Virus record (IMG/VR): IMGVR_UViG_3300021857_000099
Span: 1 to 39,834 of that record
Direction: 5' to 3' (one strand)
Length of the DNA stretch: 39,834 nucleotides
Source of the DNA: a virus
Part shown: positions 7,442 to 13,893 of the stretch, piece after piece
Layout of the letters: each line of letters opens with the position of its first letter
Position numbering within the stretch: position 1 is the stretch's first letter
Notes under the pieces: model-generated
Databases searched by the model: none
What the model was told of the DNA's origin: nothing
Seen by the model: the letters and a program-made list of their open reading frames with translations, nothing else
Program-made: the position numbers and the translations under genes

Positions 7442-8191
7442 TCAAAGGTTGGGTAAAACGGGTTCTGCGTAGCAGCGGCAATTCGGGCCGCAGCCCGCGT
7501 GGTAGGGCTCCAGGTTCTTGTCGGTCTTCGGTGGCTGGTCCCACCGCACGTACTTGCCTTCCATGTCCTGGTGGGTCAGGCGCACGTCATGGTCGCCACT
7601 GGTCCGCCAGATGTAGCCATCGCTGCCAGCGAACTGGGCACGGGCCTGCGTAAACAAGGCGGCGGAACGGGCCACCTCAGTCCGGGCAATGAGTCTGGCC
7701 CGGTTGGTGGTGACCTGGCCAGTCCGCATGATGTCGGCAGCAATCTCCTGAGCCCGGGTGCTCTGAGTACGACCCAGCGTGGCAAGGTCGTGGACCCGCT
7801 CTGCCGCCTTTGTGGGGAGGCTCGTAATCAGGTCCACTTGCTCGCGCATAAGCTGGCGGTAGACCTGACCCGTCGGGGCATGGGCAATCTCTGTCCTAAT
7901 GGCTGCGGACATGTCTTTGCTATTCTGCTTCCACTGCTTGGCGTCGCGACGGTCTACGTCGGTCACCATGTAGTTAGCCACCGAGGTGGCCCACGGAAGC
8001 AGGAGCCGGGCATAGGCGTTGAGGATCGTCGTGACCGGGGTAGGGTCTTTGATGAGGTCCTCAGGCAGGAAGCCCTTGATCAGGTGGTCAATGTGCCGGG
8101 CCACCCGGCGGAGCTGCGTGTTATACGAGCTTTCGGCGAACCGGGCGATGAGCCACCGTGACCGAATCCCGCGCCTGTCCATTGGCAGCAT
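7442..8191 (-). CDS. Phage Mu F-like head morphogenesis (minor capsid) protein
   Basis: 249 residues from an ATG at 8191 that has a clear AAGGAGAT Shine-Dalgarno; the frame is open further upstream to 8260, but that part lies inside the portal gene and lacks a ribosome site. The C-terminal half carries the Phage_Mu_F signature: a helical region ending in IARTEVARSAALFTQARAQ, then YIWRTSGDHDVRLTHQDMEG, then a WD-x-PP region and a closing YHAGCGPNCRCYAEPV with three cysteines. Mu gpF-family proteins are minor head proteins bound near the portal and needed for head assembly or DNA ejection. The gene overlaps the portal gene by 71 bp, which fits the usual portal-Mu F order. Confidence 0.9.
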   Translation of the reverse strand: MLPMDRRGIRSRWLIARFAESSYNTQLRRVARHIDHLIKGFLPEDLIKDPTPVTTILNAYARLLLPWATSVANYMVTDVDRRDAKQWKQNSKDMSAAIRTEIAHAPTGQVYRQLMREQVDLITSLPTKAAERVHDLATLGRTQSTRAQEIAADIMRTGQVTTNRARLIARTEVARSAALFTQARAQFAGSDGYIWRTSGDHDVRLTHQDMEGKYVRWDQPPKTDKNLEPYHAGCGPNCRCYAEPVLPNL

Positions 8192-9650
8192 TGCTATCTC
8201 CTTCGTCTCCTGGCAGGTCCATGTTACCGGTCTCCGGCTCTGGTGGCGCCACCTCGTCATCTGCGGCCTCGATGACCTCGCTGGTGATGTTGGTGAAGAT
8301 ACCAGTCACCCGGCTGCTTTGACGCAATTCCTTGAGTGCCGTCTGTCGACCAATAAGGCCATTCTCAAACGCATTGCTGACGGCGGTCTGCGTCGTCGAG
8401 GCCACGTCTGCCCGCTCTTTGTCATCAAGCTCCAGGAGACTTGAGAAGTCGAGGCGGAAGTCATCCCCCAGTTTGATGCCCTTGCTTTGGGCGATGAGCT
8501 TGTAGATGGTGGTCATGCCAACCGTCATGGTCTTGCGCTGCTGTTGCCGGACGTGGTCATAGAACATGCGCAGGTCAGACTCACCAGTGCTATTGAGGCC
8601 GGCGGGTGACTGACCGAAGAGCCGGACCAGTGGGATCTGAAGCGCACCACTGAGCTGTTGACCGAACTGGGTAAGCGCGTCACTCAGGCCACTGAAGGCC
8701 GAGTGACCTTGCACTTCAAACTCGTCCTCGGCATCCAGCATGGTAATGCCTTCCATGCCTTGGAAGCGGCGCATCATGTTGACCGACGACACAAGCCCTT
8801 CCAATGGCTTGCCACCGCTGGCCACAATGTCACGGAACCCCTTCATCTTGAGCGTCCGCAGGTAGCTCTTGTAGACCAACTGGGCAGCGCCGGTGCTGGC
8901 ACTGTCGAAGGCAATCATGCGGTCGTAGAGACGCTCAATGACGGAGAGGCCCCACAAGTTTTCAGTCAAGCGCTGGCGGTAAGGCAACTGGATGCCTTCC
9001 ATGCGGAACGCGAGCCGGCTATAGTGGACGGTCTGGCCACGCAAGGCCGGGGCATTGGACTGCACCCGGTAGTACTTGGGCAAGCCCATCATGGGACCGT
9101 AGTCCGTGACGAGGTCTTCCACTGACGCCTCAACCATCCAGCGGTCAAGGACAAGGAGGCCGCAGAACTGGTCCTCGCTCACGGTCTCAAGCCGGAGCGG
9201 CGTCTTCGGGTCTTGCTTGTCAATGAGCATGACGGCAATGCAGCCACCATAGAGCCGAGCCCATTTGATGGTTTCATTGGTCTTGCCCCAGATGTCGAGG
9301 TTGACGGCCTCGTTCTCCAGGACCTCCTGGTCACCGGGTTCCAGCTCGGTCAGGAAGTCGACGCCGGCCCGCGTCATGTCATCGGCCACCAGATCGACGG
9401 CAACCCCACCCAGCCAAGAGCCCCGGTGAATCCATTCGAGCTGGACCGGCTGGCGGGTGATGGGGTTGTAGCCGTAGGTGGCAGAGGTCAGCGGGTTGTC
9501 AGCACCGAAGCCCATCTTATGGGCAAAGTTGACAAAGTTGTCACCAGTGGGAACCGCGTTGAGCGAGGTGCCGGTGTTCAATCCGTCACGGGCTCGCCGG
9601 TCCGCGGTAGTGGCTTGCTTGATAGCAGCCTTGACGGATTGCTTCGCCAT
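8121..9650 (-). CDS. Phage portal protein, DUF1073 family
   Basis: 509 residues. It matches the DUF1073 (phage_portal_3) family: an N-terminal helical/loop segment, then YGYNPITRQPVQLEWIHRGS, WLGGVAVDLVADDMTRAGVDF, a WARLYGGCIAVMLID strand, an ENLWGLSVIERLYDRMIAFDSAS segment and SGALQIPLVRLFGQSPAGLNSTGESDLRMFYDHVRQQQ. The latter is the hallmark of portal proteins, where the stem and clip helices meet. About 510 residues is normal for the family. The portal forms the dodecameric ring for DNA packaging and exit. The acidic C-terminus (EAADDEVAPPEPETG) is coded in the overlap with the Mu F-like gene. Some DUF1073 proteins in databases are linked with the Acb1 anti-CBASS fold; I see no such added domain here. 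Confidence 0.93.
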   Translation of the reverse strand: MAKQSVKAAIKQATTADRRARDGLNTGTSLNAVPTGDNFVNFAHKMGFGADNPLTSATYGYNPITRQPVQLEWIHRGSWLGGVAVDLVADDMTRAGVDFLTELEPGDQEVLENEAVNLDIWGKTNETIKWARLYGGCIAVMLIDKQDPKTPLRLETVSEDQFCGLLVLDRWMVEASVEDLVTDYGPMMGLPKYYRVQSNAPALRGQTVHYSRLAFRMEGIQLPYRQRLTENLWGLSVIERLYDRMIAFDSASTGAAQLVYKSYLRTLKMKGFRDIVASGGKPLEGLVSSVNMMRRFQGMEGITMLDAEDEFEVQGHSAFSGLSDALTQFGQQLSGALQIPLVRLFGQSPAGLNSTGESDLRMFYDHVRQQQRKTMTVGMTTIYKLIAQSKGIKLGDDFRLDFSSLLELDDKERADVASTTQTAVSNAFENGLIGRQTALKELRQSSRVTGIFTNITSEVIEAADDEVAPPEPETGNMDLPGDEGDSNAANGQARDSVTVAHRPVRRKLV

Positions 9651-9653
9651 TGG

Positions 9654-10037
9654 TTACAGGCTCTTGAGGTAGGCCAGCATGTCGGCCTTGTATTGGAAGA
9701 CCAGCGGGTGACTGGCTTCGCTGACCTCGACCGCCTCAACTGCTTCCACCAGGTCGTCCACGATGGCACCTTCCACGTAGTCAGCGGCGGCCTCAATCTT
9801 GTTAGCCGTGGCGTGGTACAGGTCTGCCAGTTGGGTGGCCGGGTTCGAGGGTCGTGCGTAGAACTTCTTGGGAGCGGCCGCAGGAGCGTCGATTGCCGGA
9901 TCCGAGGGGGTGACAGGGGCAGTAGCCGTTGGGTCGCTCCCAGCCATGTCCTGGTCGTTCTGGGGTGGGGTTTGAGCGGCGAGCGCTGCTGCCTTCTGCT
10001 CGTCCGTCAATTGTGGGTCTTGGTTGGTATCGTCCAT
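9654..10037 (-). CDS. Hypothetical protein, proline/alanine-rich N-terminus
   Basis: 127 residues from the ATG at 10037, which has AAGGA six bases upstream; a TTG two codons earlier is less likely. The first 60 residues are low-complexity, acidic and Pro/Ala/Thr-rich (disordered). The remaining part is helical (ATQLADLYHATANKIEAAADYVEGAIVDDLVEAVEAVEVSE) and ends KADMLAYLKSL. It sits between the virion ADP-ribosyltransferase-like gene and the portal, separated from the portal by 3 nt, so it is probably made together with head proteins. Function not recognised. Confidence 0.7.
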   Translation of the reverse strand: MDDTNQDPQLTDEQKAAALAAQTPPQNDQDMAGSDPTATAPVTPSDPAIDAPAAAPKKFYARPSNPATQLADLYHATANKIEAAADYVEGAIVDDLVEAVEAVEVSEASHPLVFQYKADMLAYLKSL

Positions 10038-10039
10038 GG

Positions 10040-10303
10040 TCAATCCTTGTGGTAGTGAATGATGACCCGGCCCTTGGACCGGGGGTTTGAGTCTTGCAAG
10101 AATGAGTCAACCCATTCGTCGTCGTGAATCAGGCCAGCGTCTACGGCCCTAGTGTAGGTCTCAGTGCTGCGAAACCAAGCCAGGTCGAGGTCAGCCCCCA
10201 TCACCTGGAAGAACTCCGGGCTCTTGTACGGTGGCAAGTCCCAGGAGGTTTTGGTCCAGTCAGCGTCTTGCTGGTCCGCGTCAATGTCAATGACCTGCGT
10301 CAT
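10040..10303 (-). CDS. Hypothetical protein, 87 aa
   Basis: The start codon at 10303 overlaps the stop of the upstream gene (ATGA), and the stop lies three bases ahead of the next ATG, so it is embedded in a tightly coupled operon. The product is acidic and aromatic, with a WTKTSWDLPPYKSPEFFQVMG segment and a TRAVDAGLIHDDEWVDSFLQ segment, ending in basic and histidine residues. No known domain. Its position beside the portal suggests a small head-associated or assembly protein, which is inference from location only. Confidence 0.7.
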   Translation of the reverse strand: MTQVIDIDADQQDADWTKTSWDLPPYKSPEFFQVMGADLDLAWFRSTETYTRAVDAGLIHDDEWVDSFLQDSNPRSKGRVIIHYHKD

Positions 10304-12192
10304 GGTACTGCCTTTGCCTTCTTTTTCTTGCCAATGCCAAAAGCACTCAACACCTCACGCAGCTTCTCCGTGGCAGAGGTCGCAGAGGCGGCGGAGGTCG
10401 ACGGCAACGAATAGCTGTCAAGGGCATGATGCCCGAGCACCACTACTTCATGCTCGCTGGTGCAGCCGAACCCGGTCATATAAGTACTGAGTACCTGACT
10501 GGCTGGCACCTTGGTGAGGTAGACCGTGCCGCCACTGGCGAATGACTTGGCCGTTGAGTAGTTGGCACTGAACGAGCTGGCTGGTTGGAGCTTGAGCTTG
10601 CTAGGACCGGCGTGGGTCTGCGTGGCCGTGCTCAGTTTCATGCCCCGAGCCAGGTAGACGTCTTTGATGCCATGCTGACTTAGTAGGTCTTGAGTTTCAT
10701 GGTACTGGGCATGGACGAACTCTTGCAAGCCTGCCTTGAAGGTCTTGAGTTGCTCGTCCGTCTCTATTTTTAGGCCAAGCTGGTAGGCACCCTGAATGAA
10801 AGTCTTGTCCTCACCCAACTGAGCCACACTAGCCAGAGCCTTGAAAGATACGGCGTCGGTCGGCTGGGCAAACCCATCCCTGACGGCGAGCTGTAGGGCG
10901 CAGCTAATTGGGTTACTGTCACCACTACTCCCGGCCCATACTTTGACAAGCTTGGATTCAAGGCTCCCGATTGACCCATCCTGAGGACTATTCAGGGCCT
11001 TCTTCAGTTGGATAAAGTTGTGACTGTCTTTCAAGCGCTCCGACAGCTTCGTAGCCACGGACTTCTTGTTGCCAATGTTACTGCCCGACAGACCGGAGAG
11101 CAATTCCTTGAGAGCCAGGATGCCAGACTGGAACTTGCCATTCACTATGTCCTTGGGGCCAATGGGCTCGAAGGTCGAAGGTACCAACGAGTCGTAGTTC
11201 TTGGGAGCCACTGGCTTGTAGTTGGTCAGGTCTGCCACAGTCGAGGCCATGACGGCCGTGGGAGTGGTGGCAGGCTTGTCCGTCTTGACCACTGGTGGGT
11301 ACTTGCCTTGCTTCTCCAGGAGCGTATTGGTCTTCCACTGAATGATGCTGTCCTTGAGCGTGGCAGACCAAGTACCCGCCGTCGCTTTCTCGGCCTTGTT
11401 AAAAAGGTCAAGGGCCAAGGCATTGTCTGCTTTGAAGAGCTGCTGTACCATCGGGGCCTTGGCAATGCCATGGACTGCTTCCGACCATTTGGCCATCAAG
11501 TGGGCCTTCTGAGTCTTGTACTCAAGCACGGCGAAGTTCGCTGCGGATAGGTCACCCTGATCAAAAGCCTTCTGAATTTCCTTGCCCATGTCAAACAGGG
11601 CAAAGGTCATCTTCTGGTCGTACTCAGCACTGGCCAGGTCCTTCGCCGACTTGGACGGCTGCTTGGCAGGAGTGTCAACAGGCATGGTCTGCGTCAGGAT
11701 GGCGCCAATCTGTGAGCCCTCAGTGGTCAAAGCCGTGGCCACCTCACCAGTCGAGGTCACGACCTGGTAAGCCCCATTAGGCAGCTTCTTGATATCAAGG
11801 GCACCAGCCTTGGGAGCCGTCTTCGGGTTCTTAAAGAACGAGATGAACGACTTCATGGTGTTGGCGTTGGTATGGCCCGTAATCTCAAGTAGCTCGTTCA
11901 AGGTGAAGGGGTGACCGCTTGAGAGCAGTTCATACGCCGCATGCTTGGGCACCATGGTCGAGGCCGATGTGGGCTTTACGCCAGCCTTGACCACTGACGC
12001 AAACTGACCACCTTTGCTAGAGCCCGCCGGTTGATGGGGGTGCTTGGACGGGTCATAGTCGTCGTGGGTCTTGCCAGCCGCCATGTTCAGGGCCTCAAGC
12101 ACTCGCTCTGTCAACTCGTCGTAAAGGTCTTCCAGACTCCGGCCGTCCGCTGTCCTGCGCTTCCTACCTGGTATGGTGATGGTGGTGATCAT
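10300..12192 (-). CDS. Virion-associated putative ADP-ribosyltransferase, 630 aa
   Basis: The chosen ATG at 12192 overlaps the terL stop (ATGA); an ATG at 12222 would add ten residues but has poor spacing. Near residue 45 is a [18 protein letters not shown] motif, the DP-x-x-G-x-F linker typical of phage head-associated proteins bearing enzymatic modules. The C-terminal region has the R-S-E triad of arginine-type ADP-ribosyltransferases: YLARG (R516), [14 protein letters not shown] (S540-F-S542, the STS-like strand) and the [10 protein letters not shown] segment with E580-x-E582. The spacing fits the ART fold. The middle 400 residues are helical and unrecognised. Ejected phage ARTs such as T4 Alt modify host proteins at infection onset. 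The linker, the location between terL and portal, and the fused architecture suggest it is packaged in the capsid. The ART call is motif-based and strong; target unknown. Confidence 0.8.
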
Positions 12193-13508
12193 GAAATAGT
12201 AGTTCCGGCAAGGCGTGCCCATACTCCAAGGGCACCGCTGTGTTGGATCTCACCGTCGAGGCCATACCGGATGGCGTCCCAGCAGTGGTTATGCTTGTCC
12301 ACAACGACCGGGAGCACTTGGGGCTGGCCTGCCTCGTCCACCACCTTGGGATCGACCTTATAGCGGTATAGAAAGGCCTCGGCTGCGGTCTTGGTGCAGC
12401 GTGGGTGGATGATGATGGAGTCAAAGCCACGCAAGTGCGTAATGCCATCCTTGACACTGCCATCCCATTTCTCCGCACCATAGATGTTGTAGCCTTGGCG
12501 GCGGATGTAGCTAATGGTCTCGGGTCGGCTGCAGTCGGCACCAATGGGCCAGTCCCGGCTATTGGGCACGCCGTCGTAGAACGTAGGCATGTCGTCAAGC
12601 TCAACGTGGATGCCATAGGCCTCATGGCTAATGTACAGGGTCCGCCCAAGTATGAAAAAGCGGATGAGGGTGGACGGGTCCTGCGCAAAGCCGAAGTCGG
12701 CACCGAAGCGCAGTTTGTCTGCTTCCTTCCAGAGCTCGTCGTCAAACTCCTGGACGCGGTACTTGCCACTCAGAATGATGGCATTGGAAATCTTCCTCGG
12801 CATCCCCAACCAAATGTGCTCGTACAAATGGAAGTCGTTGCGTCGGTCATCCTCCATGTCCTTCTTCAGCTTGCCCGTGAAGTAGGGGTTGCTGTCGTAG
12901 TTGACCTTATGGACGATGGAGTCAGTGCGAGGCGTGGTGACGAAGCGACGGTAGGTGGCGTCGTTCTCGTCATCCATGTTGAAGCTAATCCAAATCTCCG
13001 ACGTGTCCTTGCGAATGGTCGGCAGCAAGACTTGCCACGAGCGCTCGCTTACGGAGTGGGCTTCCTCAACCCAGCAAATGTCCACGCCCTCAGTCGAGCG
13101 GATGCCGTTCTCGTTATTGAACAGGCCCTTGAAAATGAACTCGGCACCGACCCGGCTCGTAATGGTCTTCTCACCTACGGTAAACCAGCTGGACATGCCA
13201 AGGCGCTCAATAGTGTCCTTGAGGATCTTGTGGCTACTGTCCCTAATGCTGTTCTGGAACTCACGGCAGCAGAGGATACGGAGACTAGACGCACTGGCTA
13301 GGCGAATGAGTGCTTCGGCGAAGGCCCAGGACTTCGCAGCTCCCCGGCCTCCCCAATAAATCTTGTACGTGGCCTTCTTGTAGTAAAGGTCACTAAACAC
13401 GTGGCCCTTATTAAGGACCAGACTCGGTACGTCGGCAAAGTCAGGTGGCAGTTCCTGACTAGGAGAAGACTGCTCGACGGCTACGCGGTGGGCTTCCTTC
13501 CTCTTCAT
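12189..13508 (-). CDS. terL: Terminase large subunit (PBSX-like)
   Basis: ATPase and nuclease motor for packaging. The ATPase domain has Walker A GGRGAAKS (about residues 53-60), Walker [10 protein letters not shown] (about 142-150) and a coupling [10 protein letters not shown] segment. The nuclease domain has the [11 protein letters not shown] strand (Asp about 271), GADCSRPE, and [14 protein letters not shown] near the C-terminus, supplying the acidic metal ligands of the RNase H-like fold. These are features of the PBSX/Terminase_3 family. Three starts are possible: 13589 (GGAG six bases upstream but 131-bp overlap with terS), 13529 and 13508. I list 13508 because it gives the smallest overlap and a normal distance to Walker A. 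The stop overlaps the next gene. Confidence 0.93.
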
Positions 13509-13893
13509 CCGACGGCTCTTCTCCGCCATTGCCAAGATTAGTGCCTGTTTGGGCGGCAAGCTCCTTAATGATGCGATCAAGCTCGTCATCGTTGACTCCG
13601 GTAATGACCTCCACTGTACTAATCTTTGGCGCGTAGTACGGAGCCGCTGCTACCGCAGCCGACTTGCGTGCCTCAAAGTCGTAGTTCTCAACCACGCGAC
13701 TCACCTTCCCATCTTTGTCGACGGTCTCACGGTAAATGACTTCACCGCGGGCAATGCGTAGGAGCAGTTGGTGGGGCAGCTCGCCAGTAGCCAGTGCCAG
13801 TTGCCTGGACTCCTCTGCTATCTTGCTCAGCGATCCTTTAGGACGGCCGCTACCGGGTCGTGGTCCGCCTCGTCCAGTTAGTGTTGTTTTCAT
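13459..13893 (-). CDS. terS: Putative terminase small subunit
   Basis: 144 residues. The N-terminus has [19 protein letters not shown], an AT-hook-like basic arm common to small terminases of this type. Residues 25-50 form helices ([25 protein letters not shown]). [22 protein letters not shown] segment follows, which is also typical (AAPYxHPK). The C-terminus is acidic then basic. It is the first gene of the leftward virion operon, directly upstream of terL and overlapping it, the standard terS-terL order. Small terminases recognise the packaging site on phage DNA, often near their own gene; the hairpin-rich leader upstream is a candidate. Confidence 0.85.

What the first reader, a model, noticed from the sequence alone, without database searches (positions are those of the whole stretch)
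10300..12192. Large virion protein with a C-terminal ADP-ribosyltransferase signature
R516, S540-F-S542 and E580-x-E582 form an R-S-E triad at normal spacing, in a 630-residue protein encoded between terL and portal. A DP-x-x-G-x-F-type linker occurs near the N-terminus. This suggests an enzyme packaged in the head and injected, as T4 Alt is, possibly modifying host RNA polymerase or defence factors. The roughly 400-residue middle is unrecognised.
Basis: partly seen in the sequence, partly recalled or inferred. Interest (0 to 1): 0.7.

Follow-up and report, generated by a model that had tools for sequence, protein, structure and literature searches.

The report
Phage DraT-like ADP-ribosyltransferase with conserved partner
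A gene between a phage's DNA-packaging and portal genes encodes an NAD-using protein-modifying enzyme, related to the nitrogen-fixation regulator DraT, that is probably carried in the phage head and injected; it travels with a tiny, strikingly conserved companion protein that looks like its dedicated regulator.

Summary
ORF 10300-12192 (minus strand) has R516, S540-F-S542 and E580-x-E582 exactly as stated. The pattern alone is weak evidence (12% of shuffles contain it), but R, S and the last E are invariant in 49 of 49 non-identical homologous domains, and E580 in 48. The domain is an ADP-ribosyltransferase (ART), but not a sequence relative of T4 Alt. It is a divergent relative of DraT, the arginine-specific dinitrogenase-reductase ART (hhalign 96.9%, E 1.6e-10; against seven Alts the score is at chance). 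Relatives are fused to MuF (7 of 34 ORFs) or portal (2), which supports head packaging; no virion data exist.

New here: the next gene (10040-10303, 87 aa) is a conserved partner (DWxKxxWDLPPYKSxEF...GLIxxDEW). A search with the partner alone retrieved loci that nearly all carry this ART. In 30 distinct loci it is the adjacent gene in 21, fused to the ART in 5, two genes away in 1. It is far more conserved than the enzyme (56% versus 36% mean identity).

Best reading: an injected arginine-ART with a cognate partner, more likely an inhibitor (as Bsi for the MuF-ART Bxa) than an activator or adaptor. Host target unknown. New variant of a known kind.

The parts
10300..12192 (-). ART effector gene, 630 aa (640 aa from an upstream ATG at 12222)
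12001..12063 (-). Linker, residues 44-64, [21 protein letters not shown]; nearly the same linker in L036; G[RQN][FW] precedes the ART in 20 of 37 related ORFs versus 6.6 expected
11743..11955 (-). Winged-helix-like module, residues about 80-150; shared with seven other distinct ART ORFs and with one neighbouring non-ART ORF (L053)
   Evidence: model pLDDT mostly above 84; HMM search
11308..11646 (-). Helical bundle, residues about 183-295, moderate confidence
10393..11160 (-). DraT-like ART domain, residues about 345-600
10645..10647 (-). Catalytic R516, 49/49 homologues
10567..10575 (-). S540-F541-S542 (S540 49/49; 541 F or W; 542 S, T or A)
10447..10455 (-). E580-x-E582 (48/49 and 49/49)
10040..10303 (-). 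Conserved partner gene, 87 aa, DWxKxxWDLPPYKSxEF...GLIxxDEW; start overlaps the ART stop (ATGA)
12189..13589 (-). Terminase large subunit (context)
9654..10037 (-). Small ORF of about 127 aa between partner and portal, start uncertain, no conserved match found in the related loci (context)
8121..9650 (-). Portal protein, Phage_portal_3 (context)
7442..8260 (-). MuF head-morphogenesis protein, here a separate gene (context)

Best explanation
The gene encodes an effector made with the head proteins, packaged in the phage head and injected with the DNA. Its C-terminal domain is a mono-ADP-ribosyltransferase of a phage branch related to DraT; by homology and by its E-x-E motif it should transfer ADP-ribose from NAD to arginine on one or more host proteins. 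The N-terminal linker, winged helix and helical bundle form the carrier part. The next gene, translationally coupled, encodes a dedicated 87-aa partner that binds the ART and most likely holds it inactive in the producing cell until it is packaged, as Bsi does for the MuF-ART Bxa. Shown by sequence: ART family, catalytic residues, partner linkage, head-gene context. Inferred: packaging, injection, arginine specificity, binding and inhibition by the partner. Unknown: the host target.
For: R/S/E triad kept in 48-49 of 49 domains found with keys that exclude it. Profile homology to DRAT over 169 columns with R, S and ExE superposed, score 72.3 versus at most 20.9 for 60 shuffles; two relatives pass Pfam's DRAT cut-off. 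Structural neighbours of a family member's model are ARTs in rows 1-17. Relatives fused to MuF (7/34) or portal (2/34); neighbours are portal, terminase, head protease and major head genes; whole cassette syntenic in L036; the same cargo is the C-terminal half of a MuF fusion in L008. Partner searched alone brings in the ART: adjacent gene 21, fused 5, two genes away 1, of 30 distinct loci. Precedent: Bxa with its blocking neighbour Bsi (PMC11699363); [quoted passage not shown]
Against: No virion proteomics and no enzyme assay. The window protein has no MuF or portal domain of its own. The window domain alone scores 11.7 bits against DRAT, below the cut-off of 25, and Foldseek's ExoS match is not significant by E-value. 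Immunity proteins usually diverge fast, whereas this partner is more conserved than the enzyme and is sometimes fused to it, which fits a simple immunity role less well. About 40% of distinct loci from the ART scan lack the partner.
Confidence: 0.55

Rival explanations
1. Same injected DraT-like ART, but the partner is an activator or substrate adaptor that works with the enzyme, comparable in role to the PII protein GlnB, which binds DraT and activates it.
For: Partner far more conserved than the enzyme, 56% versus 36% mean identity; fused to the ART in 5 of 30 distinct loci and repeated with it in tandem in L037; DraT is activated by GlnB (PMC7050489).
Against: The overlapping downstream position is the usual one of immunity genes (PMC5576092); the best-studied comparable MuF-ART has an inhibitor there (PMC11699363); several related ARTs lack the partner altogether.
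Confidence: 0.22
2. The ART is not injected but acts in the producing cell late in infection, or against superinfecting phages; its place among head genes reflects late expression only.
For: The window protein is stand-alone, and in SP-15 the pair lies among unannotated small genes and a protease rather than obvious head genes; Rhodococcus and Euzebya plasmids carry relatives outside phage head operons.
Against: MuF and portal fusions of the same family, the L008 bridge and the recurring linker upstream of the ART.
Confidence: 0.15
3. A member of the T4 Alt family carried by a different phage.
For: Same superfamily signature (R-S-E), similar protein length, similar inferred delivery.
Against: hhalign of the family against seven Alt proteins gives 19.7, within the range of shuffles (up to 20.0), whereas DraT gives 72.3; different locus.
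Confidence: 0.03
4. The domain has kept the ART fold but does something else in the head (structural or binding role), without transferase activity.
For: No enzymatic evidence exists here.
Against: The catalytic R, S, E and E are kept in 48-49 of 49 domains while mean identity is about 36%, which is hard to explain without catalysis.
Confidence: 0.05

Closest known systems
DraT (DRAT, PF07357), dinitrogenase reductase ADP-ribosyltransferase
   Same: Homologous along the ART domain, including the helical half; R, S and E-x-E superpose; both associated with a small regulating protein (PII GlnB for DraT, PMC7050489)
   Different: About 18% identity; encoded among phage head genes, with N-terminal cargo modules; no DraG-type ADP-ribosylglycohydrolase in the window and in 14 of 15 related records; the partner is not a PII protein by any match found
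Bxa, MuF-ART of a Bacteroides stercoris prophage, with immunity proteins Bsi and BAH (PMC11699363)
   Same: Phage-encoded ART in the head-morphogenesis region; small neighbouring gene; arginine as acceptor (shown for Bxa, inferred here)
   Different: The PHROG of Bxa was matched only by the separate MuF protein, weakly (E 0.011), not by this ART; no ADP-ribosylhydrolase here; the window ART is not fused to MuF
MuF polymorphic toxins (PMC5576092)
   Same: Relatives are fused to MuF; a small ORF follows the toxin gene
   Different: Window protein lacks MuF; MuF toxins were reported only from temperate phages, whereas this phage shows a virulent-type gene set
T4 Alt
   Same: Phage ART inferred to be packaged and injected; R-S-E signature
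   Different: No detectable sequence homology beyond a short generic motif; different locus and no partner of this family
Polyvalent proteins and head-linked phage ARTs of the Alt/VIP2 and N4 types (PMC5512222, PMC9503650)
   Same: ART cargo joined to MuF or portal, or placed near terminase and portal
   Different: Those reports name Alt/VIP2 and N4-type (HYD-type) ARTs; a DraT-like virion branch with this partner is not described in the parts read

Membership tests
ADP-ribosyltransferase superfamily, R-S-E type | Conserved R, S and E-x-E catalytic residues | tested here: met
   49/49, 49/49, 48/49 and 49/49 non-identical domains
ADP-ribosyltransferase superfamily, R-S-E type | ART fold | tested here: met
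   Beta strands and helices in ART order at pLDDT about 95 in the window model; ExoS first in Foldseek, not significant by E; a family member's model has ARTs in rows 1-17, Z 4.2-5.2. Modest scores, no competing fold
ADP-ribosyltransferase superfamily, R-S-E type | NAD-dependent transferase activity | not testable with these tools
   needs an enzyme assay
DRAT (PF07357) | Sequence homology along the domain | tested here: met
   hhalign 96.9%, E 1.6e-10, 169 columns; shuffles at most 20.9 versus 72.3
DRAT (PF07357) | Pfam gathering score of 25 bits | tested here: not met
   Window domain 11.7 bits; relatives L020 and L037 reach 39.1 and 35.4. Hence 'DraT-like', not DRAT
DRAT (PF07357) | Coupled DraG-type ADP-ribosylglycohydrolase | tested here: not met
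   None in the window; one in 15 related records; the records may be incomplete
DRAT (PF07357) | Acts on dinitrogenase reductase arginine, controlled by PII | not testable with these tools
   host and target unknown
T4 Alt family | Sequence homology to Alt | tested here: not met
   hhalign against seven Alts scores 19.7, shuffles up to 20.0
T4 Alt family | Present in the virion and injected | not testable with these tools
   context only
MuF polymorphic toxins | N-terminal MuF domain in the same protein | tested here: not met
   MuF is a separate gene, 7442-8260; 7 of 34 related ART ORFs do carry MuF
MuF polymorphic toxins | Small ORF directly downstream | tested here: met
   87-aa ORF overlapping the stop codon, conserved across loci
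MuF polymorphic toxins | Toxicity neutralised by the small protein | not testable with these tools
   needs co-expression tests in laboratory E. coli

The most novel reading that the evidence does not exclude
The 87-aa family is a dedicated activator or substrate adaptor of a phage-delivered DraT-like enzyme, so that the injected enzyme is switched on or aimed by a co-delivered micro-protein: a two-component injected ART unlike the toxin-immunity pairs known from MuF toxins.
Probability: 0.2. Interest if true: 0.75.

Novelty: new variant of a known kind. Interest (0 to 1): 0.58.

Why it matters
Phage ARTs placed among head genes are known, but have been assigned mainly to Alt/VIP2 or N4-type families. 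Here a separate, unannotated branch related to the nitrogenase regulator DraT is spread over metagenomic phages as stand-alone, MuF-fused and portal-fused cargo. It comes with one conserved small partner family that the libraries searched here did not recognise (Pfam, PHROGs, PDB sequences) and whose motif was not found in the paper library. Inhibition versus activation by the partner is a direct bench question, and the motif WDLPPYKS is a marker for finding more such pairs.

Tried and rejected
Direct searches of the window protein against Pfam, PHROGs and PDB sequences gave nothing usable, and the first viral scan with the whole protein found no relative; a C-terminal query and then an alignment worked. 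The whole-length model was a poor query for the PDB second look because the helical bundle filled the list; the ART fold was judged from Foldseek and from a family member's model, so the window's own ART domain was not folded and searched alone. Alt membership was considered and rejected. Partner as an obligate arginine substrate: its most conserved basic position next to the FxxxPVY motif is R in 22 and K in 7 of 29, which argues against it. NCBIfam and PHROGs have no convincing model for this ART. No DRAT structure was found by sequence in the PDB, so no structural comparison with DraT was possible. The SP-15 genome paper holds no virion proteomics terms. The literature search for the partner motif found nothing.

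Full report
Observation. The ORF lies on the minus strand, 10300-12192, 630 aa, with R516, S540-F-S542 and E580-x-E582 as reported. Its ATG overlaps the terL stop (ATGA) and its stop overlaps the ATG of an 87-aa ORF (ATGA), so terL, ART and partner are probably translationally coupled. The gene order is terL, ART, 87 aa, about 127 aa, portal (Phage_portal_3), MuF. Shuffling shows that an R-S-E-like pattern alone would be found in 12% of proteins of this composition, so the signature needed independent support.

ART identity. A first relative came from Bacillus phage SP-15 (SP15_258, 33% identity, E 5e-20), others from Rhodococcus and Euzebya plasmids and an IMG/VR contig. Alignment-based scans gave 28 viral loci with the ART query and 36 viral plus 3 genome loci with the partner query; some are the same contigs. 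Across 49 non-identical ART domains R516, S540 and E582 are invariant and E580 is kept in 48, together with a Y-x-x-T-Q helix motif and G574-x-G576. Neither search key contained the triad, so this conservation is not built in.

Closest family. Of 37 members scanned, 21 match Pfam DRAT weakly, and two members exceed its gathering cut-off. Profile-profile comparison with ten DRAT proteins from bacterial genomes gives 96.9% probability, E 1.6e-10, over 169 columns, with R, S and E-x-E superposed and the helical half included; 60 column-shuffled DRAT profiles reach at most 20.9 against 72.3. Seven Alt proteins give 19.7, within the range of their shuffles (up to 20.0). The domain is thus DraT-like, not Alt. 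DraT modifies Arg101 of dinitrogenase reductase (PMC7050489), so arginine is the expected acceptor; this is inference.

Structure. The AlphaFold model of the window protein has the ART domain at pLDDT about 95, a winged-helix-like module at 80-150 and a less certain helical bundle at 183-295. Foldseek against the PDB lists ExoS in its first two rows (E 0.065, prob 0.87), not significant by E-value. The viral library's first match is the SP-15 protein (E 8e-15), with an annotated head-morphogenesis protein at rank 3. A model of a natural ART-partner fusion (L017) has ARTs in rows 1-17 of the structural second look, Z 4.2-5.2. These scores are modest, but no other fold competes.

Context. Of 34 ART-bearing ORFs examined, 7 match MuF and 2 match a portal domain. 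The nearest large upstream genes match portal or terminase families most often, the downstream ones head maturation protease, major head or portal. L036 keeps the cassette TerS-TerL-ART-partner-portal-MuF at 43-68% identity. In L008 (the same contig as L003) the cargo part (window residues 71-601, 35% identity) is the C-terminal half of a 1512-aa MuF fusion, a direct bridge between the stand-alone and head-fused forms. G[RQN][FW] linkers precede the ART in 20 of 37 ORFs against 6.6 expected. Head packaging is therefore likely but unproven. The window carries DNA polymerase, helicase and clamp genes and no tyrosine integrase match, so it looks like a virulent-type phage, whereas MuF toxins were reported from temperate phages (PMC5576092); the record may be incomplete.

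Partner. The 87-aa ORF has no significant Pfam, PHROG or PDB match. Searching with it alone and then asking for the ART with an HMM gave, in 30 distinct loci including the window: the adjacent downstream gene in 20 (18 by domain distance, plus L038 and L067, whose ORFs are neighbours), the adjacent upstream gene in 1 (SP-15), the same polypeptide in 5, two genes away in 1 (L046), none in 3. Of those 3, L055 begins inside a truncated contig, and L070 and L071 look like decayed copies in bacterial contigs. L037 repeats linker-ART-partner twice in one ORF. Conversely, of 18 distinct loci from the ART scan, 8 have the partner, 3 only a short remnant, and 7 none. On the ART tree many of the partner-less members group together, which fits loss (support values were not examined). 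In the same loci the partner averages 56% identity against 36% for the ART, higher in 98% of comparisons.

Interpretation. The order enzyme-then-small-overlapping-gene and the experimental precedent of Bxa, a MuF-ART whose neighbour Bsi binds and blocks it (PMC11699363), favour an inhibitor. The unusual conservation and the fusions keep an activator or adaptor open, all the more because DraT itself is activated by binding the PII protein GlnB (PMC7050489). The two-domain fusion model (pTM 0.77, partner pLDDT mostly 60-84) does not decide between them.

Verdict. A real, DraT-like ART, very probably enzymatically competent and probably head-delivered, in a conserved pair with a small protein family that no library searched here names. 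The general idea of head-delivered phage ARTs is known (PMC9503650, PMC5512222); this branch and its partner were not found described in the papers searched, which do not include most subscription journals.

Noticed in passing
L037:4754-7474: One ORF with linker-ART-partner-linker-ART-partner-linker in tandem, as if the module were duplicated as a unit.
   Followed up: partly
L008:4218-8756: The MuF-ART fusion carries an intein/Hint-like insert between the MuF C-terminus and the linker, and a predicted metallopeptidase-like stretch (AHELGH) near its N-terminus; read by eye, not searched.
   Followed up: no
L053:3910-5709: The ORF after the partner holds the same winged-helix module and a GGQW linker but no ART, so the module is shared between different cargo proteins of one phage.
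   Followed up: partly
L035:1806-3752 and L020:7473-9608: Two tandem ART ORFs in L035 and two ART domains in one ORF in L020.
   Followed up: no
L018:5677-5736 and L024:8504-8566: Only the first part of the partner motif (LxNADWxK) survives directly after the ART, now fused to other ORFs: apparent partner remnants.
   Followed up: partly
L004-L007: Rhodococcus and Euzebya plasmids encode relatives of this ART without the partner, with different N-terminal regions.
   Followed up: partly
L008:8759-9517: In this phage the partner is the N-terminal part of a 252-aa protein that ends in a polyvalent-protein-type InPase domain (PF18823, E 1e-39).
   Followed up: partly
L089 (record of L050): One related phage record encodes a DraG-like ADP-ribosylglycohydrolase (PF03747, E 9e-68) far from its ART.
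   Followed up: no
window:17752-39408: The rest of the window holds a nucleotide pyrophosphohydrolase, a ParB-like protein, DnaB-type and other helicases, a DNA polymerase processivity factor and a DNA polymerase.
   Followed up: partly
window:1153-3525: Two ORFs of 488 and 300 aa beyond the head genes have no PHROG match.
   Followed up: no
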